Shown here: piece after piece, positions 4,600 through 42,723 of the stretch
Layout of the letters: every line of letters begins with the position of its first letter
Position numbering within the stretch: position 1 is the first letter of the stretch
Virus record (IMG/VR): IMGVR_UViG_3300049459_000143
Coordinates: 1-42,723 of that record
From: a virus
Strand: one strand, 5' to 3'
Length of the DNA stretch: 42,723 nt
The notes under the pieces: model-generated
What the model was told of the DNA's origin: nothing
Database searches by the model: none
What the model saw: only the letters and a program-made list of their open reading frames with translations
Made by a program: the position numbers and the translations under genes

Positions 4600-5517
4600 T
4601 CAGGCGGCGGCCATCAGCGCTTCGATTACGCGCTGGCCGGCGAGCGGAGGAACAGCGTTGCCGGCCATGTGCACAGTCAGACGGTGGCTGTCCGGGCGCT
4701 TGGTGTGGGCGGGGAAAGACATTGCCAGCAGGTTCTCGTTGGCCGTGAGCATCCGCATCTTGTCGCCGTTTACGATTGCCCAGCGATCCCGCGTCGTGAT
4801 GGTTCCGATCGGGCGGGTGAGGGCGCGGCCGCTGCGGGTGTTGCCGTAGTAGCTGAACAAGAACTGGTCTCCGTATGCCGCGCGACCTGCCTTCACCCGT
4901 TCCAGCGTTGCGGCGGCTCGCCCTGGACGTTCGATATCAGCCCAGCGGCCCGCTTCCAAATCGATGAAAGAATTCGCCGCGGTATGACGCTCCGGCCGGA
5001 GGTCCAGCATGAGGGGCGCCGCGCTTCGGGTGCAGACGAGGAACATGCGGACCCGGTTCTGAGGTACACCCAGGTCTGCGCAATCAACGATATGCGGCGC
5101 GACCTGATATCCCAGCGAGCGCATGGCCGACAGCCACGCGGGATACAGCGCCCAGTCCACGAACTCAGGAACGTTCTCGACAATGGCCGCTTCGGGCCGG
5201 TGAAACTCCAACGCCGAGACAACTGCCCAGGCCGTGGATCGGCTTGAGTCGTGCTGCGGATTGCCGGATGACTTGCCTCGCGCCTTGGAGTGGCCTTGGC
5301 AGCAGGGCGAAGCCAGCAAGATGTCGTGGCTCGGAACCTTGGTCCAGTCCGCCTGGTGTAGGTCTTGGCAGATGTGCTGGGTGTCAGGGTGATTGGCGCT
5401 ATGCCACTCGACCGCGACAGGCCAGTGGTTGGCCGCCCAGAGTACTTCGACACCCGCCGCGCGGGCACCGGTAGACCATCCGCCGAGTCCGGCGAACAAA
5501 TCGATAGCTGTAGTCAT
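4600..5517 (-). CDS. DNA cytosine-5 methyltransferase (orphan, phage)
   Basis: A 305-residue C5 methyltransferase that would transfer a methyl group from S-adenosylmethionine to cytosine in a specific DNA site. Motif I is DLFAGLGG (6-13); motif IV is SPCCQ (70-74) with the aligned catalytic Cys73; motif VI is ENVPE (114-118); motif VIII is QNRVRMF; motif IX is about TRPIGTITTRDR; motif X is GNAVPP near the C-terminus. The usual proline before the catalytic cysteine is replaced by cysteine. No restriction gene lies nearby, so it is an orphan enzyme, likely for protection of phage DNA or regulation. The target recognition region is short. Confidence 0.93.
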   Translation of the reverse strand: MTTAIDLFAGLGGWSTGARAAGVEVLWAANHWPVAVEWHSANHPDTQHICQDLHQADWTKVPSHDILLASPCCQGHSKARGKSSGNPQHDSSRSTAWAVVSALEFHRPEAAIVENVPEFVDWALYPAWLSAMRSLGYQVAPHIVDCADLGVPQNRVRMFLVCTRSAAPLMLDLRPERHTAANSFIDLEAGRWADIERPGRAAATLERVKAGRAAYGDQFLFSYYGNTRSGRALTRPIGTITTRDRWAIVNGDKMRMLTANENLLAMSFPAHTKRPDSHRLTVHMAGNAVPPLAGQRVIEALMAAA

Positions 5518-34000: not shown

Positions 34001-34408
34001 ATGCTGAATCAATACCTGTCCGCTCGCTATGTCGATGGCGGCCGCGAACTGCCGTGCCTGGATTGTTGGGGCATGACCATTCTCGCCCGTCACGAGCTGT
34101 TCGGGCTGCCCATGCTTTCCAGTTTCGGCGAAGTTCATCGGCAGCACACCTTGGAGTTCCAGCGGGCGTATCGGGGCGAGGTCAGTAGGGCCCTAGAAGA
34201 ATGTGCGCCGTTTCCCGGCGCAATTGCCGCCGTGCTGCGCGGAGCGGTTTGCACGCATGTCGGCCTTGTGGTCATGAAGGATGGTCGGCTGCAGGTCCTC
34301 GAAATAAATCCAGCCAGCGGTGCCCGCGTAGTGCGCCTGCAGGAATTCAAAGACAGTTACATGAAGGTGGTCTTTTACCGTGATCGAGATCCTGACGAAC
34401 AAGCTTGA
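34001..34408 (+). CDS. NlpC/P60-type tail peptidase
   Basis: A 135-residue papain-like protein. The nucleophile region LPCLDCWGMTILARHELFG (Cys near 22) and the histidine in CTHVGLVVMKDGRLQVLEIN are as in NlpC/P60 tail proteins (lambda K-like) that cut peptidoglycan stem peptides during entry. It overlaps the next gene by 29 bases, a tight arrangement seen in other phages. Confidence 0.85.
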   Translation: MLNQYLSARYVDGGRELPCLDCWGMTILARHELFGLPMLSSFGEVHRQHTLEFQRAYRGEVSRALEECAPFPGAIAAVLRGAVCTHVGLVVMKDGRLQVLEINPASGARVVRLQEFKDSYMKVVFYRDRDPDEQA

Positions 34409-37109
34409 TCCTCAGGTTCTGCGTGAGCATCGCCTGAAAGCCCCGGTGACTATCGAAGCTTGGCTGATGGCTGCCACCAGAAACTATGAGCGCCGCGAAG
34501 TGCCTCCGATCAGCATCACTGCCAACGCGGTGCTGGTTCCTCCGAATATGTGGTCGGAATTCGTTATCAGTCCTGAGGATAATGTTCAGATCTGGATTGA
34601 GCCGAAAGGTACAGACCCTGTCTCGATCACTATCGCGGCGATCAAGGGCGTGCAGGCGGTGATGAAACTCATCACCCCGCGCATCAAGATGCCGAAGACC
34701 GGATCGCCAAATCAGGGCTCGACCCTGGCTGGCGCGAACGCCAAGGCGAACCAGGTGAAATTCGGTGATCCTGTTCGTGAAGTGGCAGGGGAGGACCAAG
34801 TTTTCCCGGACTATATCGTCGAGCCGCGGCGCTGGTTCAAATCGGCACGTGATGAGTGGCAGCAGATGTTGCTGTGCATCGGCGTCGGTGAACATGAGAT
34901 TAAGGTCAGCGACATCAAGATCGGCAACACGCCGATCATCTCACTTGGCGCAAACGCTACATATCAGGTCTATCAGCCTGGGGCGGACCTGAGCGCAGAG
35001 CCTGCCGCGCAGTGGTGGTACCAGGCGCCGGAAGTTGGGTCGACATCAACGGGAACCTCGGGTCTCGACTTGAAAACAACGACCACCGTTCCGCAAAATC
35101 CCGGAGCTCAGGCGTATCAGTTCAACGGTCCGTTGGTAAGCATTCCCTCTGGTGCTGGCGCTTTCCCAACCGGCTGGGCTGCTGGAATGATCGTGAGGAT
35201 TGAGGCTGCCTACCAGTACACCGTGACGTCTGGCGCTGGAGTAGGTGGGCGCGACGTAGTGTCCGGTCCGCTCGCGCAGCTGGCACCATTCCCCGGGATG
35301 TCCATTGAGGTAGTCGGCGCGAACCAAGGGTTTTACCTGGTGAACAGCTACACGCCGCCTGCGGGCAGCACGCCGGCCCAAATGACGCTCAATACCATCG
35401 GTGGTGCCCCCGTGTCGGGTTTGCAGTCCGGCGTCGGTTGGGCCGCTATCGGATACCGAAGTCTTCGGTTCCGCATCACAGCGGCAAGCACTTCGCAGCT
35501 CAGCGTCCAACGCCTTACCGCTGCCGGTGCTGTTGATACAACATGGCCGGGGTTCGATTTCCTGCAAAGCAACTCGGCGTTGATAACCCTCGACAGCTCA
35601 ACCCTGGAAGGTGATTGGGCCGGTCCTTATGCACTCTGCCCGCCGGGGATGAAAGCCAGCAAGTTTGCATTCACGGTGATGTTTCCGTCCGGCCTCGCTG
35701 GCGTGGACAAAAAGGGAGCCTTGTTTCAATGGTCGGTAGACTACGAGTTTCAGTACCGCGACCGGACTACAGCTGGAGACTGGGTCTCGTACAAGGAGAC
35801 CATCACGGAAGCAACGCTCGATCAGCTTGGATACACTCGGGAAATCACAGCTGCCGCGCCTATCGAGGCAGAAGGTCGTATGCGCCGGATTGGTGCTAAA
35901 TCTACCTCGACCAGCATTCAGGACAACATCCAGTGGTATGACATGCGCGCGCTGCTTCCAAGCCCGAAGTCCTATCCAAACTGGACGCTGCTGGCGATAT
36001 CAGCCGCCGGTGGCGGCAAGCTGGCGGCGCAATCCGAAAACCGTATCAGCGCCGTCGTGACCCGCAAACTGCCCGTCCTGGAAAACGGAGCGTGGACAAC
36101 GGATAAACGCCCGACCAGGGATATTTCCGCCTGGTTCAATTACGTGACGAAGAAGCCCGGTTACACCGATGCCGATATCGACATGGAAGAACTTTCTGCG
36201 CTGCATCAGATCTGGACGGCGCGGGGCGACACTTTCGACTACTCAACTGAAGACTTCACTACGGTGAAGGAAGCTTTGAACTCGGCACTCGCGGCCGGAT
36301 TTTCTGAGCTCACCATCAGCCGTGGGAGGCTTCGCCCGATTCGTGACCAGAAGCGGGAGGGCATCGACCACGAATACTTGCCCGAAGGTACCCAAGGGTA
36401 TTCCGCCCAAAACGTGATCGGCCCTCTCAAGATCGCTTTCAATCCACCAGATCCAGCGGACGACCATGACGGCGTCGACGTTGAATACAAGGACCGGATC
36501 ACCAGGCAAACCGAAACCGTCCGATGCAGGCTGCCGGGCGACCTCGGACTGAAGGTTGAGAAGGTGAAGGCAGTCGGCGTCAGCGACAGGAACAAAGCCT
36601 ACCAGCTCGGAATGCGCCGCCGTCGTGAGGCCAAGTATCGGCGGTGGACATACAGCTTCGATACCGAACTCGACGGTAACAACAGCGAATACGGGAGCTT
36701 GGCCGCCGTCTCAGACGATATCCCCGAACGTGGGCAGAGCGGTTTGCTGATGTCATTCGAGACGGTATCCGGGAGTTTCATCCTTGAGAGCTCGGAACCG
36801 TTCATTTGGTCGGACGGCGTTTCCCACGTCGTCGGGCTGCGTCGGCAGGACGGAACAATGAGCGGGCCATGGCCGGCAACACGGATCGATGACTTTCACC
36901 TCAGCATCGCGAGTATCGATTTCAACCCCGACACAAGCTGGGAGAGGGATCCGCCTCACCTGCTGTTCGGACCTTTGAAGCGCTGGTGCCACCAGGTGGT
37001 GATCAGCAAAGTGAACCCCAAAGGTCTCGAGAGCGTTTCGCTACAAGGCTTCAACTACGACGAGCGGGTGTATGCCGATGACGATAGTCCGCCGCCGGTC
37101 GATTTATAG
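34380..37109 (+). CDS. Tail tip attachment protein J-like
   Basis: A 909-residue central tip protein of the TipJ/host specificity type. Residues about 1-120 match the lambda I-like/ubiquitin-like start; PVREVAGEDQVFPDYIVEPR and EISALHQIWTARG-type segments (here ELSALHQIWTARGDTFDY) are typical. It forms the tail tip and carries or anchors receptor-binding parts. Begins with GTG 34380 inside the NlpC/P60 gene and ends before a terminator. Confidence 0.9.
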   Translation: MIEILTNKLDPQVLREHRLKAPVTIEAWLMAATRNYERREVPPISITANAVLVPPNMWSEFVISPEDNVQIWIEPKGTDPVSITIAAIKGVQAVMKLITPRIKMPKTGSPNQGSTLAGANAKANQVKFGDPVREVAGEDQVFPDYIVEPRRWFKSARDEWQQMLLCIGVGEHEIKVSDIKIGNTPIISLGANATYQVYQPGADLSAEPAAQWWYQAPEVGSTSTGTSGLDLKTTTTVPQNPGAQAYQFNGPLVSIPSGAGAFPTGWAAGMIVRIEAAYQYTVTSGAGVGGRDVVSGPLAQLAPFPGMSIEVVGANQGFYLVNSYTPPAGSTPAQMTLNTIGGAPVSGLQSGVGWAAIGYRSLRFRITAASTSQLSVQRLTAAGAVDTTWPGFDFLQSNSALITLDSSTLEGDWAGPYALCPPGMKASKFAFTVMFPSGLAGVDKKGALFQWSVDYEFQYRDRTTAGDWVSYKETITEATLDQLGYTREITAAAPIEAEGRMRRIGAKSTSTSIQDNIQWYDMRALLPSPKSYPNWTLLAISAAGGGKLAAQSENRISAVVTRKLPVLENGAWTTDKRPTRDISAWFNYVTKKPGYTDADIDMEELSALHQIWTARGDTFDYSTEDFTTVKEALNSALAAGFSELTISRGRLRPIRDQKREGIDHEYLPEGTQGYSAQNVIGPLKIAFNPPDPADDHDGVDVEYKDRITRQTETVRCRLPGDLGLKVEKVKAVGVSDRNKAYQLGMRRRREAKYRRWTYSFDTELDGNNSEYGSLAAVSDDIPERGQSGLLMSFETVSGSFILESSEPFIWSDGVSHVVGLRRQDGTMSGPWPATRIDDFHLSIASIDFNPDTSWERDPPHLLFGPLKRWCHQVVISKVNPKGLESVSLQGFNYDERVYADDDSPPPVDL

Positions 37110-37159: not shown

Positions 37160-39118
37160 ATGACCAATACCTATGACACCACTGGCCTGCCGGTGGGCAC
37201 CTCTGACCCGCGCGCGCTCTACAACAACGCCTCGAACATGGACGAGGCGCTGCATAGTCTTACAGCGTGGTGGCTGGACCGGTTCGGTAAGTACCGCAAG
37301 ACCTGGTCCGGATTCGAAGCTGACGTGCTTGCGTTCTTTCAGAACAACGGTTACGAAACGCCGGTTAACTACGCAGCCGGTTTGTCTATCACCCGCTACG
37401 GACAGACCGTTGTTTACCTTGGTGAGCTGTACGCACCCTTGGTCGCAGCTATTCCTTTCACCACATCCAACTGGGCTACGGATTCGTCCAAGTTCAAAGC
37501 CATTGGTGACGCCTCCGTCCGCGCCGCACTGGCCGCTGCAGATGGCGGCAAAATCATTGGTTATAAAACTCGTAACGTGGATGCTCGGCTCTCTGACCGA
37601 AGCAGTCTTGATGACCAAGCGGGCGTATCTGGCAACGGCGTTACCAATGACTTGTCGCCGCTGAATGCCGCGATAGCCAGCGCTCGAGGCAAGAAGCTTC
37701 TGCTCAGTGATAAAACCTATCTGGTCAGCGCGCGTCCGACGAATCCATATGGGGTTGAGTACGAAGGGAAGGGTGTTATCGCTCAACAGGTTGTTGTTGA
37801 CGGGAGCACCTATCTTCGCCAAATCAACACCTACAGTGACAAGCTGAAACTCCATATCGGCCTTGAGTACTGCCAGCGCTTGTGGACGCGTATGCGGAGC
37901 GATGGCCAGGTGAAGTCTTTCTTTTATGGCGATAGCACAATCCAAGGGGGCAACGGCGAATCGTACGAGTATCAGTTGGCTCAGTTGATCCCAGCAATGA
38001 TGTCGGGGAAGGGATACCCGAACTTTGCCTTAATAAATCGCGGTATTGCTGGCACCAGGGTTAGCGGTTGGGATACCCGGTACCTGACCGATATGTCGGC
38101 CGCCACCGACCTGATGGTGTTCAAAGGGGCTATCAACGATGCAGGCCAACCGGTAGAGACGCGACTTCAAACATACCGAACTGATCTCGAAAGCGTTTTT
38201 TCACAGATCAGGGCCCCGGGGAATATCTACGGCACAGTTAAGAACCTCACTCTGGTATTGATGGGGCCCAATGCAACCAACGACCTTCCAAACGGCCGTG
38301 ACCCTAAATTCTACGAGCAGCTTCGGGGCATACACGTCGAGATTTGCCACAAATATCAGGTGGCCTTCTTCGACACCTACGGGATGATGCCAGACGCAGA
38401 TAACGGCGATGGCACCTGGTTGGATGCCCCTGTTCCTGCCGTCAAAGTTGGTGTTGGTATCCATCCGATGGATATCGGAATGTCTTGGATCTGGGGCGCT
38501 ATGCTCGACTTCATCTGCCCTGATACGGCGATGACGGTTTTCAAGAAGAACCACGACATCAATGCGGGCTCTTCCTCGGCGGTCATCCTTGCCACGACTC
38601 CGGCGACCAGTTTTCAGTTCGGTCGGTCACTGTTTCCTGCGGAACTGGGGAATGGATGGCCCTTGCCAGGCGTGGTGGAAACAGTCCGAAACGTTGACGG
38701 TTCGTGCATTCAGCGCAACTGGGGTTATCGCAACAACGAGTGCGTCGTCGCCAGCAGAATCTGGAGCGTTAATGGTGGATTCTGGAGCTATTTTACCGGC
38801 GTAGAGTACGACCTCGCGTATGTAAACGGCTGGAGCACGTTCGGCAGCCCACTTGCTAAAGGCACTGTTGTCGTGGATCAGTCGGGGATGGCCCACGTAG
38901 AGTTTGCGATGAAAGGTGGGACCGTTGCTGCCAATACGGTTTTTGCGAACCTCCCCACCGGCATCCTCCCCAAGTACACGGTTCCGGTACCCGTCAATAA
39001 GAACACAGCGATCGGGATGATCAGGTACAACACGGCAGGCGAGTTAAAGCTGGAGACCGCCGGCGACGCCACTCTCATGTCCGGTTCGTTCACGTTTCGG
39101 GTGGCGACGCCGATATAG
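37160..39118 (+). CDS. Tail fibre/spike with SGNH esterase domain
   Basis: A 652-residue receptor-binding protein. The first 100 residues are a particle-anchor region (ALYNNASNMDEALHSLTAWW). Residues about 250-450 form an SGNH/GDSL hydrolase: block I GDST near 257, block II Gly in NRGIAGTR, block III GAIND near 324, block V His in GIHPMD near 433. Such fibres remove acetyl groups from host polysaccharide during adsorption. The C-terminal 180 residues look like beta-sandwich modules. Start at ATG 37160 with GAGGAAA upstream. Substrate unknown; neighbouring O-acyltransferases make O-antigen the leading guess. Confidence 0.85.
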   Translation: MTNTYDTTGLPVGTSDPRALYNNASNMDEALHSLTAWWLDRFGKYRKTWSGFEADVLAFFQNNGYETPVNYAAGLSITRYGQTVVYLGELYAPLVAAIPFTTSNWATDSSKFKAIGDASVRAALAAADGGKIIGYKTRNVDARLSDRSSLDDQAGVSGNGVTNDLSPLNAAIASARGKKLLLSDKTYLVSARPTNPYGVEYEGKGVIAQQVVVDGSTYLRQINTYSDKLKLHIGLEYCQRLWTRMRSDGQVKSFFYGDSTIQGGNGESYEYQLAQLIPAMMSGKGYPNFALINRGIAGTRVSGWDTRYLTDMSAATDLMVFKGAINDAGQPVETRLQTYRTDLESVFSQIRAPGNIYGTVKNLTLVLMGPNATNDLPNGRDPKFYEQLRGIHVEICHKYQVAFFDTYGMMPDADNGDGTWLDAPVPAVKVGVGIHPMDIGMSWIWGAMLDFICPDTAMTVFKKNHDINAGSSSAVILATTPATSFQFGRSLFPAELGNGWPLPGVVETVRNVDGSCIQRNWGYRNNECVVASRIWSVNGGFWSYFTGVEYDLAYVNGWSTFGSPLAKGTVVVDQSGMAHVEFAMKGGTVAANTVFANLPTGILPKYTVPVPVNKNTAIGMIRYNTAGELKLETAGDATLMSGSFTFRVATPI

Positions 39119-39143
39119 GTGGCGTACTGGCCGATACGTATCC

Positions 39144-39163
39144 GGCGCCTATGGCAGGGCGCC
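39144..39163 (+). other. Short hairpin after the fibre gene
   Basis: GGCGCC (39144-39149) and GGCGCC (39158-39163) around TATGGCAG. It lacks a T run; termination would be weak. The rest of the 128-base gap holds a possible -10 box TATCAT at 39215-39220 for the next gene, without a convincing -35. Confidence 0.35.
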
Positions 39164-39246
39164 ATTACTTGTATTCGGCCTGAAAAATTTCACGCGCTTT
39201 TGTGTTCAACCCGATATCATTGCGCCTCATTGAACGGAGTCGTGTA

Positions 39247-39420
39247 ATGCGTGTCACAACCTATTCGTCCCTTATTCTTGCCCTCACCTTACTGTCTGGC
39301 TGCGCTCCTGCGGATCAGATAGATCAGGCGAGCGCTGAAAATCAGCCGAGTGCTCAGATGGAACTGGCAGGCAAACTGCTTCGCGGTGAATCTCCAAGAG
39401 AGCGAGCGGGCGGCGAATGA
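39247..39420 (+). CDS. Small lipoprotein, 57 aa
   Basis: The signal peptide MRVTTYSSLILALTLLSGC ends in a lipobox (LSGC, Cys19), followed by a short polar, acidic mature part of 38 residues. A GGAG ribosome site precedes ATG 39247. Its stop overlaps the ATG of the acyltransferase (39417-39420), so they are co-translated. In a lysogen it would be a surface or periplasmic lipoprotein; lipoproteins of this size in prophages can mediate superinfection exclusion. Confidence 0.72.
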   Translation: MRVTTYSSLILALTLLSGCAPADQIDQASAENQPSAQMELAGKLLRGESPRERAGGE

Positions 39421-40514
39421 AACTCAATGCTCTGACCTCGCTGCGGTTTTTTGCCGCACTTGCGGTGTTTCTGCACCACTTCCATTTCTTCCAACACACC
39501 ACCAGTCCTGAACTGCACGGCCTGTATGGCGCCTTCTTTGAAGGGTTTGCAGGGGTGACATTCTTCTACGTGCTGTCGGGCTTCATCATCAGCTACAGCT
39601 ATGACGCGCAAGCGAAGAAGCGTCCGTACTCGGCAGGGGAGTTCTTGTTTAACCGGTTCGCCAGGCTGTACCCGGTTCACCTGCTGACGCTGGGCATCGC
39701 GATTGCGGCCTATGTCGGATTCAACAATCTAAACCTGATTGACGGTAAGGTGCTGGCGGCAAACGCCCTGCTGATCCAGAGCTATATCCCGGACTCGTCC
39801 TACTTCTTCTCCTTTAATGGCGTTGCATGGAGCATTTCGGCAGAGCTGTTCTTTTATGTGGCGTTCATCACCCTGTTGGTGAGGCTTCGCACTCGGACGC
39901 TTTTCGTAATAGCTTTGGCAATGGCCGTGCTGATCGGCTTCTTGATCAACAGTCCGTTGCGCTACAACCCTGCCTACAGTTGGATTTTCTACATCAACCC
40001 AGCTTTCAGGGTGATCGACTTTATCGCCGGCATGCTGGTCTTCCGTCTGTACATGAGCGGGAAATTCCGCATCAGTGAAGGGCAGGGAACCTTTGTGGAG
40101 GTCGCTTCGCTCGCGCTGCTTGGTATGTTTGGCTATCTGGGCCTGAACGGCGTTTCGATGCTGTGGCGCTTTGATCTGTTCTACATCGTGCCAATGGCTA
40201 TTGTCGTGTGGGTATTCGCCCAAGGGCAGGGCCTACTCTCGAAGTTGATCAGCCGTCGCTTGTTCGTGACCCTGGGCGAAGCATCGTTCAGTCTGTACAT
40301 GATCCATCAGATCGTCATCACGGTCGCGCTGAGCAATATGCCAGTCGATATCAACCAACCTCGCCAGGTGTACTGGTTTATTGGCTCGACAGTGGTGTTG
40401 GGCATCGTGGGTTCAGTCGCGATGTATCTGTATTATGAGAAGCCGCTAAACGACTTCCTCCGAAACCGGTGGAAGGCCCGGGAGGCGAAATACAAGTTGG
40501 CTACGCAGAGCTGA
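39417..40514 (+). CDS. O-acyltransferase, acyltransferase-3 family (first)
   Basis: A 365-residue integral membrane protein with about ten membrane helices. The family start is clear: LTSLRFFAALAVFLHHFHFF with the conserved Arg and His, then FFYVLSGFIISYSYD and NRFARLYPVHLL. Such enzymes add acetyl groups to lipopolysaccharide O-antigen or other surface glycans; phage versions cause serotype conversion and block related phages. Coupled to the lipoprotein gene and ended by a bidirectional terminator. Confidence 0.92.
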   Translation: MKLNALTSLRFFAALAVFLHHFHFFQHTTSPELHGLYGAFFEGFAGVTFFYVLSGFIISYSYDAQAKKRPYSAGEFLFNRFARLYPVHLLTLGIAIAAYVGFNNLNLIDGKVLAANALLIQSYIPDSSYFFSFNGVAWSISAELFFYVAFITLLVRLRTRTLFVIALAMAVLIGFLINSPLRYNPAYSWIFYINPAFRVIDFIAGMLVFRLYMSGKFRISEGQGTFVEVASLALLGMFGYLGLNGVSMLWRFDLFYIVPMAIVVWVFAQGQGLLSKLISRRLFVTLGEASFSLYMIHQIVITVALSNMPVDINQPRQVYWFIGSTVVLGIVGSVAMYLYYEKPLNDFLRNRWKAREAKYKLATQS

Positions 40515-40526
40515 AATTGAATCAAT

Positions 40527-40552
40527 AAAAAACCCGCGAGAGCGGGTTTTTT
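40527..40552. terminator. Bidirectional terminator between acyltransferase genes
   Basis: CCCGC (40533-40537), loop GAGA, GCGGG (40542-40546) flanked by A6 and T6. It serves both convergent genes. Confidence 0.92.
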
Positions 40553-40566
40553 GTTGTCTGGCTTTC

Positions 40567-41745
40567 TTATGGCTGGGCGGGCGACTGGGGTGGAGCTGGA
40601 AGCACTGGCGTTGTTGAGCCTTTGCGTAGGAAGCGTTCGAAGCGCATGGCTGGCGCCTCGATGAGCATGTGCAGGGCGTACGATAAAAACGTGGTGCATG
40701 CCAACGCGATCGCCACACAGACGGTTGGTGCCAATCCCTTGTCCAGAAGGATGGTCATGATCACGTAGCCTGCCAGGCTGTGAACCACGTATAGCGGGTA
40801 GCTTATCTTTGCAAAGAAATCTAGGACTCTGTTGCCTCGAAAGAACCTTGGGAAGATGAAGGCTACGGAGAAAGTAATCAGTCCGTATCCATAGCTGTAG
40901 ATTATGTTTATCAAGCCGCTGTAGTAATCGTTAGTCCAGCTGAGAACAACGCCAGTGAAGGCCGCAACTCCGAAGATCGAACCTATCAATCCAGCCGCTT
41001 TGAGCTTGTTTATTCTGCCGGTGTGCAAATAGTGAAACACAACACCGATGAACATAAACGCAATGTATGGTGAGGCGTTGATGAAGTTAGTTGCTTGTTT
41101 GAATGCTTCAATGTTGCTTTTGAAAAAGCCCGGAAGCATGGGATATAGCACATAGCTGATGGCAGAAATTGCAAATGGCAGGATGAATATCATCAAGCTC
41201 TGTCTTTTGAAAAGCTGTATAGCAAGAAGGCAGATTAAGTAAAACTTAAGCTCTACTTCTAAAGTCCAGATGATGCCGTCGAGATTGCGCTGCCAAAGCA
41301 GGTCTCGTAGTCCTGGGAAAAGGTGAATCACCGACTCTGATGTGGTGAGTTTCCATTCGTTCCCGAAGTACGACCCCCCGATGTAGATTGAGAGCAGAGT
41401 CAGCGAGAAGCCGACGATGTACGTTGGGTATATACGGAGTATCCGGTTGATGAGGAAATCTTTTGCTGAATAGGATTTTAGAGAAAATGGTATGACAAAT
41501 CCGCTAATCAGGAAGAAGATCGATACTCCGTACGGCCCCCATGTGAAGCCGTGGCCTATGTTTACCAGATCCACAAACCAAGGCTTGGGGAATTTATCCT
41601 CGGACAGTTCCGGCATGTTTGTCATAATTGATACTGTGTTTCTAGCTAGCCAGAAAAAGTAAAAATAATGGGAAATCACAACGAATAGCGCCGCCAACCC
41701 TCGGAGAGTATTGGCGAAAGCGATCTTATTTTTTTGAGTGCTCAA
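40567..41745 (-). CDS. O-acyltransferase, acyltransferase-3 family (second)
   Basis: A 392-residue membrane enzyme, read opposite to the rest of the late region. Family features: TLRGLAALFVVISHYFYFFW, IFFLISGFVIPFSLKSY, NRILRIYPTYIVGFSL, and about ten membrane segments. I start at TTG 41745, eight bases after AGGAAG; earlier in-frame codons back to 41865 have no ribosome site. It is distinctly more AT-rich than the structural genes, suggesting recent acquisition, and should be expressed in the lysogen independently of Q. Sequence divergence from the first enzyme suggests a different acceptor position. Confidence 0.9.
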   Translation of the reverse strand: MSTQKNKIAFANTLRGLAALFVVISHYFYFFWLARNTVSIMTNMPELSEDKFPKPWFVDLVNIGHGFTWGPYGVSIFFLISGFVIPFSLKSYSAKDFLINRILRIYPTYIVGFSLTLLSIYIGGSYFGNEWKLTTSESVIHLFPGLRDLLWQRNLDGIIWTLEVELKFYLICLLAIQLFKRQSLMIFILPFAISAISYVLYPMLPGFFKSNIEAFKQATNFINASPYIAFMFIGVVFHYLHTGRINKLKAAGLIGSIFGVAAFTGVVLSWTNDYYSGLINIIYSYGYGLITFSVAFIFPRFFRGNRVLDFFAKISYPLYVVHSLAGYVIMTILLDKGLAPTVCVAIALACTTFLSYALHMLIEAPAMRFERFLRKGSTTPVLPAPPQSPAQP

Positions 41746-41912
41746 CGTAAGTCTTCCTGTGAGTGTGTTTCTTCCTCGTGTCGAATTGTATCGAAAAGCG
41801 TACTGTCGAAGCCACTCAAAAGTTCCATAGCATTTATCTATTGGCTGACGCCCCCCCCGATTCATTTATACGGCCCGTATATCACGGGCATCATTTTGAC
41901 TGGAGACGAGAT

Positions 41913-42338
41913 ATGGTCGTGACTGAAAAAGATCGCGATGTGCTTGCGCGCACGCTTTTCGGCGAAGCGAGGGGGGAAGGGTTGGCGGGGATGGTGGCCG
42001 TGGCCTGGTCGATCCGCAACCGGGTTGAGGACGGCAAGGAAAAATCATGGTGGGGCGAGGGCTATGCCGGTGTATGCCAGAAACCGTACCAATTCAGCTG
42101 CTGGAACAAAAACGACCCTAACTATCCGTACTTGAGTGGCGCGAAGCCGATCCCGGCGGGTGAGTTCGTGATGTGCCGTCTTGCGGCTGAGCAGGTCATT
42201 GGCGGGCTGAAGCCTGACCCCACCGGCGGCGCGACTCACTACTACGCGACCACCATGCCAAAGCCACCGGCCTGGGCAGCAAAGGCGAAGCAGACGCTGA
42301 AGCTCGGACACCACATCTTCTTCAGGGACGTGCCATGA
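41913..42338 (+). CDS. Cell-wall hydrolase, SleB type (endolysin)
   Basis: A 141-residue single-domain hydrolase of the SleB/Hydrolase_2 type: LARTLFGEARGEGLAGMVAV, a WSIRNRVEDG segment, PYQFSCWNKNDPNY, and TGGATHYYATTMPKPPAWA are diagnostic, with Glu of FGEARGE as the likely catalytic acid. It is the only endolysin candidate seen in the window and would degrade peptidoglycan glycan strands at lysis. Start at ATG 41913 with GGAG eight bases upstream. There is no signal peptide, so it needs a holin. Confidence 0.9.
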   Translation: MVVTEKDRDVLARTLFGEARGEGLAGMVAVAWSIRNRVEDGKEKSWWGEGYAGVCQKPYQFSCWNKNDPNYPYLSGAKPIPAGEFVMCRLAAEQVIGGLKPDPTGGATHYYATTMPKPPAWAAKAKQTLKLGHHIFFRDVP

Positions 42339-42723
42339 GCCCAGCTGCTGCGCTTTATCTGAAGGTCGGCGGCGCGCTGGCGGTCCTGTTCATCATCGCG
42401 GCGGTTCTCTACGGCGCTTATCACCACGGCGAATCGGTGGCCGATGCGCGCTGGCAGCTGAAGTGGGCTGATCAGCAGACGCTACAGGCGGAAGGTCTCG
42501 CCGCCGCCACGACCGAAAACCGAACCGAAGAACAGCGCCGCCAGACGGCGGTCAACCAGGTGGGAAATGATGCGAGACAACAACAGGCTGTTGCGACTGC
42601 TGACGCTGTCAGTGCTGATGCTGCTGGCGACCGGGTGCGCGACCAAGCAGGAAAACTGGCTGCCAGCGCAAGTTGCACCACCGGCGATCCCGGCGCTTCC
42701 CAGCGAAGCGAAACAGCCACTCG
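42335..42723 (+). CDS. Second Rz-like inner-membrane spanin (runs off the window)
   Basis: Starts at ATG 42335 overlapping the endolysin stop. A single N-terminal membrane helix (about 8-28, YLKVGGALAVLFIIAAVLYG) is followed by a periplasmic helical region with an RTEEQRRQTAVNQVGNDARQ segment typical of DUF2514/Rz proteins. At least 129 residues; the end is outside the window. It is unrelated in sequence to the first Rz at 20645. Confidence 0.85.
   Translation, partial: MSPAAALYLKVGGALAVLFIIAAVLYGAYHHGESVADARWQLKWADQQTLQAEGLAAATTENRTEEQRRQTAVNQVGNDARQQQAVATADAVSADAAGDRVRDQAGKLAASASCTTGDPGASQRSETAT
42567..42723 (+). CDS. Second Rz1-like lipoprotein spanin (partial)
   Basis: Embedded in the second Rz gene in another frame. 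Start at ATG 42567 or 42570. The signal sequence (RLLRLLTLSVLMLLATGC) ends at Cys24; the mature part begins ATKQENWLPAQ and is Pro-rich as in lambda Rz1. The 3' end is outside the window. A nested lipoprotein at this place strongly confirms the second spanin pair. Confidence 0.82.
   Translation, partial: MMRDNNRLLRLLTLSVLMLLATGCATKQENWLPAQVAPPAIPALPSEAKQPL

What the first reader, a model, noticed from the sequence alone, without database searches (positions are those of the whole stretch)
37160..41745. Possible acetyl write/erase system: esterase fibre plus two O-acyltransferases
The tail fibre carries an SGNH hydrolase core (GDST, NRGIAG, GAIND, GIHP). Directly after it the prophage encodes two different membrane O-acyltransferases, one rightward with a lipoprotein and one leftward and AT-rich. 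Known biology: phage acyltransferase-3 proteins acetylate O-antigen and exclude related phages, while SGNH fibres deacetylate polysaccharide. Inference: the fibre may remove one acetyl mark to adsorb, whereas the lysogen writes other marks that this or rival fibres cannot remove. Having two writers next to one eraser is unusual and could form a modular receptor-specificity cassette.
Basis: partly seen in the sequence, partly recalled or inferred. Interest (0 to 1): 0.78.

Follow-up and report, generated by a model that had tools for sequence, protein, structure and literature searches.

The report
Esterase tail fibre beside surface-modifying genes
A prophage, probably of Pseudomonas, carries a tail fibre with an acetyl-esterase domain next to one or two membrane O-acyltransferase genes, in a spot where related prophages swap genes that remodel the bacterial surface; the esterase-acyltransferase pairing recurs in unrelated prophages but is not a fixed unit.

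Summary
The fibre (37160-39118) carries an SGNH/GDSL esterase domain. It is followed by a 57-aa lipoprotein, an AT3 acyltransferase in the same direction (AT3A) and a second, AT-richer AT3 running the other way (AT3B).

Related phages show that the block is modular. AT3B is absent from two relatives with a 97% identical fibre. In another relative, AT3A (97%) and AT3B (96%) stay while the fibre's receptor part is only 38% identical. Two fibres 59% identical carry AT3A in one phage and a glucosyltransferase cassette in the other. So there is no fixed 'one eraser, two writers' system.

What does recur is a surface-modification slot just downstream of the fibre: AT3, AT3-SGNH, MBOAT, Gtr or other genes. 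All seven phage-borne AT3A genes at 48% identity or more lie next to SGNH fibres, in unrelated backbones and opposite relative orientations. Acyltransferases are enriched beside SGNH fibres (5/7 versus 9/51 fibre clusters, P=0.007), but preference for acyl over glucosyl writers is only suggestive.

Most likely this is lysogenic conversion by O-acetylation beside a deacetylating receptor-binding protein. Whether writer and eraser share one acetyl group is open.

The parts
34380..37109 (+). tail protein J (host specificity, tail tip), shared backbone gene used to find related prophages
   Evidence: PHROG 469 E 2.9e-245; 97% identical in L003-L005
37160..39118 (+). tail fibre with N-terminal adapter and central SGNH/GDSL hydrolase domain (about residues 250-440); Ser258, Gly297, Asn325, His434 conserved, no canonical Asp (numbering without the first Met)
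   Evidence: PF13472, PHROG tail fibres, block alignment, fold match
39247..39420 (+). 57-aa lipoprotein (lipobox LSGC), stop overlaps AT3A start; diverged homologue precedes AT3A in P. nicosulfuronedens
   Evidence: ORF; 85% in L004/L005, 57% in L003; L025 upstream ORF
39417..40514 (+). AT3A, membrane O-acyltransferase, same direction as the fibre
   Evidence: PF01757 83.7 bits; R10-X10-H21 and R80-XX-R83
40527..40552 (.). hairpin with A and T runs, likely bidirectional terminator shared by AT3A and AT3B
   Evidence: sequence CCCGC-GAGA-GCGGG flanked by A6 and T6; a similar hairpin follows AT3A in L004/L005
40567..41745 (-). AT3B, second membrane O-acyltransferase, AT-rich, opposite direction, TTG start preceded by AGGAAG; absent in L004/L005
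   Evidence: PF01757 96.1 bits, insertion boundary, composition and start context
41746..41912 (.). AT-rich leader upstream of AT3B, belongs to the inserted segment; probably holds the AT3B promoter
   Evidence: absent in L004/L005; consensus scan did not call a promoter here
41913..42338 (+). endolysin (cell wall hydrolase), start of the lysis module, right border of the slot
   Evidence: PF07486 E 3.7e-17
42335..42721 (+). Rz-like spanin, cut by the end of the record
   Evidence: PF10721 / PHROG 312

Best explanation
The 37-42 kb block is the fibre-lysis boundary of a temperate siphophage genome, used as a lysogenic-conversion slot for genes that modify surface polysaccharide. The fibre is a receptor-binding protein whose SGNH domain most likely removes O-acetyl (or other acyl) groups from a host glycan during adsorption. 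Lipoprotein-AT3A is a translationally coupled pair that most likely O-acetylates the lysogen's surface polysaccharide. AT3B is a later, separately transcribed moron of the same enzyme class, acting at another position or on another sugar.

In the lysogen the AT3 enzymes change the coat and so block adsorption by the same or rival phages. The fibre, used in the virion, works on the acetylation of the next host. The two functions are neighbours because both concern the same receptor glycan, but they are exchanged separately.

Shown here: gene identities, active-site motifs, modular exchange, and recurrence of the slot and of the SGNH-AT3A pairing. Inferred: substrates, acetyl as the group, expression in the lysogen, and exclusion.
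For: Identities. AT3B insertion between terminator and endolysin, absent in L004/L005. Fibre swapped while AT3A and AT3B stay in L003. In Pseudomonadaceae prophages with the same J, the same slot holds AT3-SGNH on the minus strand (L125, L127, L131, also IMG/VR L008/L010), a secreted GDSL esterase (L124) or an epimerase (L128). In enterobacterial phages sharing the fibre adapter, the slot holds AT3, AT3-SGNH, MBOAT or Gtr. AT3A relatives in phages lie next to SGNH fibres in two unrelated backbones, same-strand in one and convergent in the other. SGNH fibre versus acyltransferase over 58 fibre clusters, 5/7 versus 9/51, P=0.007. Literature: a deacetylating tailspike needs O-acetylated O-antigen (G7C; PMC10743462); phage AT3s block their own or rival tailspikes (Sf6, BTP1; PMC9558356).
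Against: No biochemical data. The canonical triad Asp is missing. AT3 proteins can acylate glycans other than O-antigen. No good promoter for AT3A was found and the AT3B promoter is only inferred. No relative has a named host except the AT3A gene in P. nicosulfuronedens, whose contig is 4.3 kb. Statistics rest on few independent lineages: two of the SGNH-positive clusters share one AT3A by descent, and many SGNH-negative records have no surface-modification gene in the slot at all.
Confidence: 0.68

Rival explanations
1. Matched pair: AT3A writes exactly the acetyl group that the SGNH fibre removes. The lysogen's coat then shuts out phages that cannot handle the acetyl group, while the prophage's own progeny can still bind, process and leave acetylated surfaces and debris.
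For: All seven phage-borne AT3A relatives at 48% identity or more are beside SGNH fibres, in two unrelated backbones with opposite gene orientation. Acyl-type writers follow 7 of 7 SGNH groups that carry any modifier in E. coli, against 5 of 10 non-SGNH groups.
Against: AT3A stays 97% identical while the fibre's receptor part falls to 38%. Fibres 59% identical carry AT3A (L012) or Gtr (L028). Known phage acetylases block, rather than suit, their own tailspike (Sf6, BTP1; PMC9558356).
Confidence: 0.15
2. The genes share only a permissive insertion site. AT3A and AT3B modify something unrelated to the fibre's receptor, and the SGNH-AT3 neighbourhood reflects how common both families are in prophages.
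For: The slot also holds Gtr, GT2, GNAT and epimerase genes, and AT3 follows fibres without SGNH in 8 of 51 fibre clusters. Among clusters that carry any modifier, the SGNH-acyl preference is not significant (P=0.21).
Against: Nearly all the slot genes that could be assigned act on surface glycans. The AT3A clade is found with SGNH fibres only, apart from a 37% relative beside a different tailspike (TL-2011b) and copies without a visible fibre.
Confidence: 0.15
3. The fibre's SGNH domain has lost catalysis and works as a glycan-binding module only.
For: [quoted passage not shown]
Against: Ser, Gly, Asn and His are invariant over homologues as low as 27% identical in the receptor part, which argues for retained catalysis. 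Ser-His dyads without the Asp occur in active CE2 acetylesterases (PMC9487903). Asp404 and Asp411 are invariant and could serve.
Confidence: 0.08

Closest known systems
SGNH tailspike deacetylases (phage G7C gp63.1; SGNH receptor-binding proteins of Klebsiella prophages, PMC13123978)
   Same: SGNH/GDSL domain in the receptor-binding fibre; expected acetyl-ester removal without cutting the glycan
   Different: No sequence match to a solved phage SGNH spike in the PDB search; different adapter; canonical Asp missing; activity not tested
Serotype-converting phage O-acetyltransferases (Sf6 Oac, BTP1 OafB, PMC9558356; D3 O-acetylation as cited in PMC13123978)
   Same: AT3 membrane acyltransferase carried by a temperate phage, expected to acetylate surface polysaccharide
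   Different: Two AT3 genes here; AT3A coupled to a small lipoprotein; fibre carries an esterase rather than a depolymerase; neither AT3 has a fused SGNH domain
Escherichia phage TL-2011b O-acetyltransferase (gp49)
   Same: AT3A relative (37%) directly after the putative tailspike gene and before the lysis genes
   Different: Its putative tailspike shows only a weak pectate-lyase-like match and no SGNH
IMG/VR prophages L012, L013, L024
   Same: AT3A relative (48-49%) next to a full-length SGNH fibre relative (about 32-35%)
   Different: Enterobacterial-type backbone, genes convergent, no AT3B, different small ORF before AT3A

Membership tests
SGNH/GDSL hydrolase (PF13472) | profile match above curated cut-off | tested here: met
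   51.2 bits against 32.9
SGNH/GDSL hydrolase (PF13472) | catalytic Ser, oxyanion Gly and Asn, catalytic His in blocks I, II, III, V | tested here: met
   S258, G297, N325, H434 invariant in nine homologues
SGNH/GDSL hydrolase (PF13472) | Asp three residues before the His (DxxH), usual but not universal | tested here: not met
   V, I or Q at that position in all nine rows; many CE2 members lack it too (PMC9487903), so this does not exclude membership
SGNH/GDSL hydrolase (PF13472) | SGNH fold | tested here: met
   Foldseek hits to SGNH esterases, probability 1.00, with a moderate-quality domain model whose C-terminal part is poor
Polysaccharide-deacetylating receptor-binding protein (G7C gp63.1 type) | removes O-acetyl from host polysaccharide, needed for adsorption | not testable with these tools
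   needs purified protein and host polysaccharide
Acyltransferase-3 (PF01757) | profile match above curated cut-off | tested here: met
   83.7 (AT3A) and 96.1 (AT3B) bits against 31
Acyltransferase-3 (PF01757) | R-X10-H in the first membrane helix and RXXR at the third (PMC9833829) | tested here: met
   AT3A R10-H21 and R80-R83; AT3B R55-H66 and R141-R144 in the 432-residue reading
OafA/OafB type AT3-SGNH fusion | SGNH domain fused behind the AT3 domain | tested here: not met
   Pfam finds only PF01757 in AT3A and AT3B; the fused form occupies the same slot in L008, L125, L127, L131
Serotype-converting temperate phage | temperate, with integrase and repressor | tested here: met
Serotype-converting temperate phage | conversion gene is an add-on, present or absent in close relatives | tested here: met
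   AT3B absent in L004/L005; AT3A absent in L006-L010 with the same backbone
Serotype-converting temperate phage | lysogen polysaccharide is modified and superinfection is changed | not testable with these tools
   needs lysogens
Known anti-phage defence systems (PADLOC) | profile match | tested here: not met
   no match for fibre, lipoprotein, AT3A, AT3B

The most novel reading that the evidence does not exclude
SGNH receptor-binding proteins and O-acyltransferases form a recurrent matched writer-eraser module in temperate phages: the prophage writes the same acyl mark that its own virions can process, so the lysogen excludes phages without the esterase yet stays open to its own progeny.
Probability: 0.15. 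Interest if true: 0.75.

Novelty: new variant of a known kind. Interest (0 to 1): 0.48.

Why it matters
Deacetylating receptor-binding proteins and prophage acetyltransferases have been noted separately, and their interplay has been proposed in general terms for Klebsiella prophages (PMC13123978). Here they are physical neighbours in several unrelated prophage lineages, which gives concrete gene pairs to test. If the pairing is functional, it would show how a temperate phage can close its host to rivals while staying compatible with its own receptor chemistry. The comparison also shows that the position behind the fibre is a shared slot for surface-modifying genes of many kinds, a convenient place to look for new glycan modifiers.

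Tried and rejected
No near DNA match of the block in 50,697 phage records.

The fibre profile found nothing in 399 Pseudomonadaceae genomes at E 1e-30, so the fibre type could not be tested in named hosts. The single genome-contig scan gave one short contig. L012 DNA has no near match in E. coli genomes.

An AlphaFold model of the whole fibre was too poor to use (pLDDT 50.7); a domain-only model was used instead.

The strict coupling of fibre type and acyltransferase type was tested and rejected. The claim that two writers behind one fibre is unusual enough to be a system of its own was weakened (L085 has two AT3 genes in the same + then - arrangement).

The idea that AT3A or AT3B carries its own SGNH domain was rejected. 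A defence-system match was looked for and not found. The promoter scan found fewer sites than shuffled sequence and was not used. The PDB profile search with AT3A gave nothing.
Full report
What is there. The window is a whole IMG/VR virus record of 42,723 bases. It holds a lambdoid temperate phage: integrase at the left, repressor and anti-repressor, O-like and DnaB-like replication genes, terminase, tail genes and a lysis module cut by the right end. Downstream of the tail-tip protein J lie the fibre (37160-39118), a 57-aa lipoprotein (39247-39420), AT3A (39417-40514, +), AT3B (40567-41745, -), the endolysin (41913-42338) and an Rz-like spanin.

The fibre. Its first 130-150 residues are a tail-fibre adapter shared with many phages and with the solved tail protein 9occ. 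The centre is an SGNH hydrolase (PF13472, E 2.8e-13). In nine homologues Ser258, Gly297, Asn325 and His434 never change. The Asp usually found three residues before the His is absent in all nine, while Asp404 and Asp411 are invariant. The enzyme may use a Ser-His dyad, as active CE2 acetylesterases do (PMC9487903), or a displaced acid. A domain model of moderate quality, with a poor C-terminal part, matches SGNH acetylesterases.

The two acyltransferases. Both pass the Pfam cut-off and keep the R-X10-H and RXXR motifs that are conserved in AT3 enzymes (PMC9833829). They are only 22-23% identical to each other, so one is not a recent copy of the other. AT3A is preceded by a lipoprotein gene whose stop overlaps its start. 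A diverged version of that lipoprotein precedes the AT3A gene of Pseudomonas nicosulfuronedens (65% identical AT3A), and a different small secreted or membrane peptide precedes the AT3A of L013 and L024. AT3B is AT-richer (GC 0.473), has a TTG start with an AGGAAG ribosome site, and faces AT3A across a hairpin with A and T runs that could terminate both.

L004 and L005 have J 97%, fibre 97% and AT3A 93% identical, but no AT3B: the endolysin follows AT3A's terminator directly. L003 has J 98%, AT3A 97% and AT3B 96%, but a fibre whose receptor part is only about 38% identical; it is still an SGNH fibre. L006-L010 share the backbone (J 56-69%) but have other fibres and no AT3A; L008 and L010 carry a fused AT3-SGNH enzyme on the minus strand at the same place. 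In ten Pseudomonadaceae prophages with the same J and enough downstream sequence, no fibre has a detectable SGNH domain, and the place between fibre and lysis genes holds an AT3-SGNH on the minus strand in three (L125, L127, L131), a secreted GDSL esterase in one (L124) and an epimerase in one (L128). So the block is a variable slot, not a fixed cassette.

Recurrence of the pairing. L012, L013 and L024 have a different backbone (J only 23% identical in L012). Each carries an AT3A relative (48-49%) next to a full-length SGNH fibre relative, but convergent rather than in the same direction. Thus all seven phage-borne AT3A genes at 48% identity or more (window, L003, L004, L005, L012, L013, L024) lie beside an SGNH fibre, and the differing orientation points to more than one joining event or to an inversion. 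A more distant relative (37%) in Escherichia phage TL-2011b lies beside a putative tailspike with only a weak pectate-lyase-like match. AT3A-like genes are rare in Pseudomonadaceae chromosomes (4 of 399 genomes at E 1e-40).

Statistics. Eighty records were collected only by homology to the fibre, mostly its adapter. SGNH was found in 11 fibres. AT3 was in the record of 8 of these 11, and in 8 of the 69 others (P=5e-5). After clustering fibres at 50% identity of the part behind the adapter, any acyltransferase (AT3 or MBOAT) accompanies 5 of 7 SGNH clusters and 9 of 51 others (P=0.007). Among clusters that carry any recognised modifier it is 5 of 6 against 9 of 17 (P=0.21). Two of the SGNH clusters share one AT3A by descent, and many of the other records have no modifier gene at all, so the first two P values flatter the association. 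In E. coli complete genomes, read from RefSeq annotation, an acyltransferase follows the SGNH tailspike in 7 of 7 groups that have any modifier, against 5 of 10 non-SGNH groups (P=0.04). At least four further SGNH groups have no modifier. The E. coli groups were delimited by hand and overlap in part with the IMG/VR lineages. I therefore take the slot as well supported and the SGNH-acyltransferase preference as suggestive.

Counter-examples to strict matching. The L028 and L012 fibres are 59% identical behind the adapter, closer than L012 is to L024 or L029 (45-46%), yet L028 has a GtrABC-type cassette where L012 has AT3A. 15G, 90% identical to L028, has no AT3 in its record. AT3 and Gtr also follow fibres with beta-helix, phosphodiesterase or unrecognised domains.

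How it probably works. Phage G7C shows the logic of a deacetylating spike: its spike needs O-acetylated O-antigen, removes the acetyl group without cutting the chain, and acetylation-deficient hosts are resistant (PMC10743462). Phage AT3 enzymes such as Sf6 Oac and BTP1 OafB acetylate O-antigen and block their own tailspike (PMC9558356). Putting the two together, the fibre most likely uses host acetylation for adsorption, and AT3A and AT3B change the acetylation of the lysogen so that the same or other phages adsorb less well. If AT3A writes the fibre's own substrate, the lysogen would stay open to its own phage; nothing in the sequences decides this. Substrates, acetyl as the acyl group, and expression in the lysogen are all inferred.

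Novelty. Deacetylating SGNH fibres, phage O-acetyltransferases and conversion genes near tail genes are each known. A 2026 study of Klebsiella prophages (PMC13123978) proposes that acetylation and deacetylation by temperate phages interact. In the passages I found it treats SGNH receptor-binding proteins and acetyltransferases separately, and my searches of the open literature found no description of them as recurrent physical neighbours. I file the finding as a new variant of a known kind.

Noticed in passing
window 39247-39420; L025 upstream of 1590; L013 and L024 upstream of AT3A: A small lipoprotein or secreted peptide gene directly precedes AT3A in the Pseudomonas-type copies and in L013/L024, with different sequences in the two branches; possible accessory subunit, no family.
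   Followed up: partly
L085 8035-9174 (+) and 9955-11118 (-): Another phage with two different AT3 genes, + then -, directly behind a fibre without a detectable SGNH domain; same arrangement as the window.
   Followed up: partly
L124 7476-8234 (-): A Pseudomonadaceae prophage with the same J carries a stand-alone secreted GDSL/SGNH esterase (252 aa) in the slot between fibre and lysis genes.
   Followed up: partly
L069 8329-9871; L073 7910-8944: AT3 genes behind the fibre are broken by stops in these two records, suggesting that the modifier is lost easily.
   Followed up: no
L142 4401-6829; L143 6320-9838: E. coli prophages with an SGNH tailspike followed by a separate SGNH hydrolase gene and a separate AT3 gene, possibly a split version of the AT3-SGNH enzyme.
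   Followed up: no
L159 4501-5736; L155 4233-5417: In E. coli prophages with the same adapter, the fibre is annotated as a glycerophosphodiester phosphodiesterase or an endonuclease/exonuclease/phosphatase family protein; possible fibres acting on phosphate-bearing surface glycans.
   Followed up: no
L154 581-1237: A quinolone resistance gene annotated QnrS1 lies upstream of the tail-tip genes of an E. coli prophage with an SGNH tailspike and AT3.
   Followed up: no
window 4600-5517 (-): DNA methyltransferase gene in the early region of the prophage.
   Followed up: no
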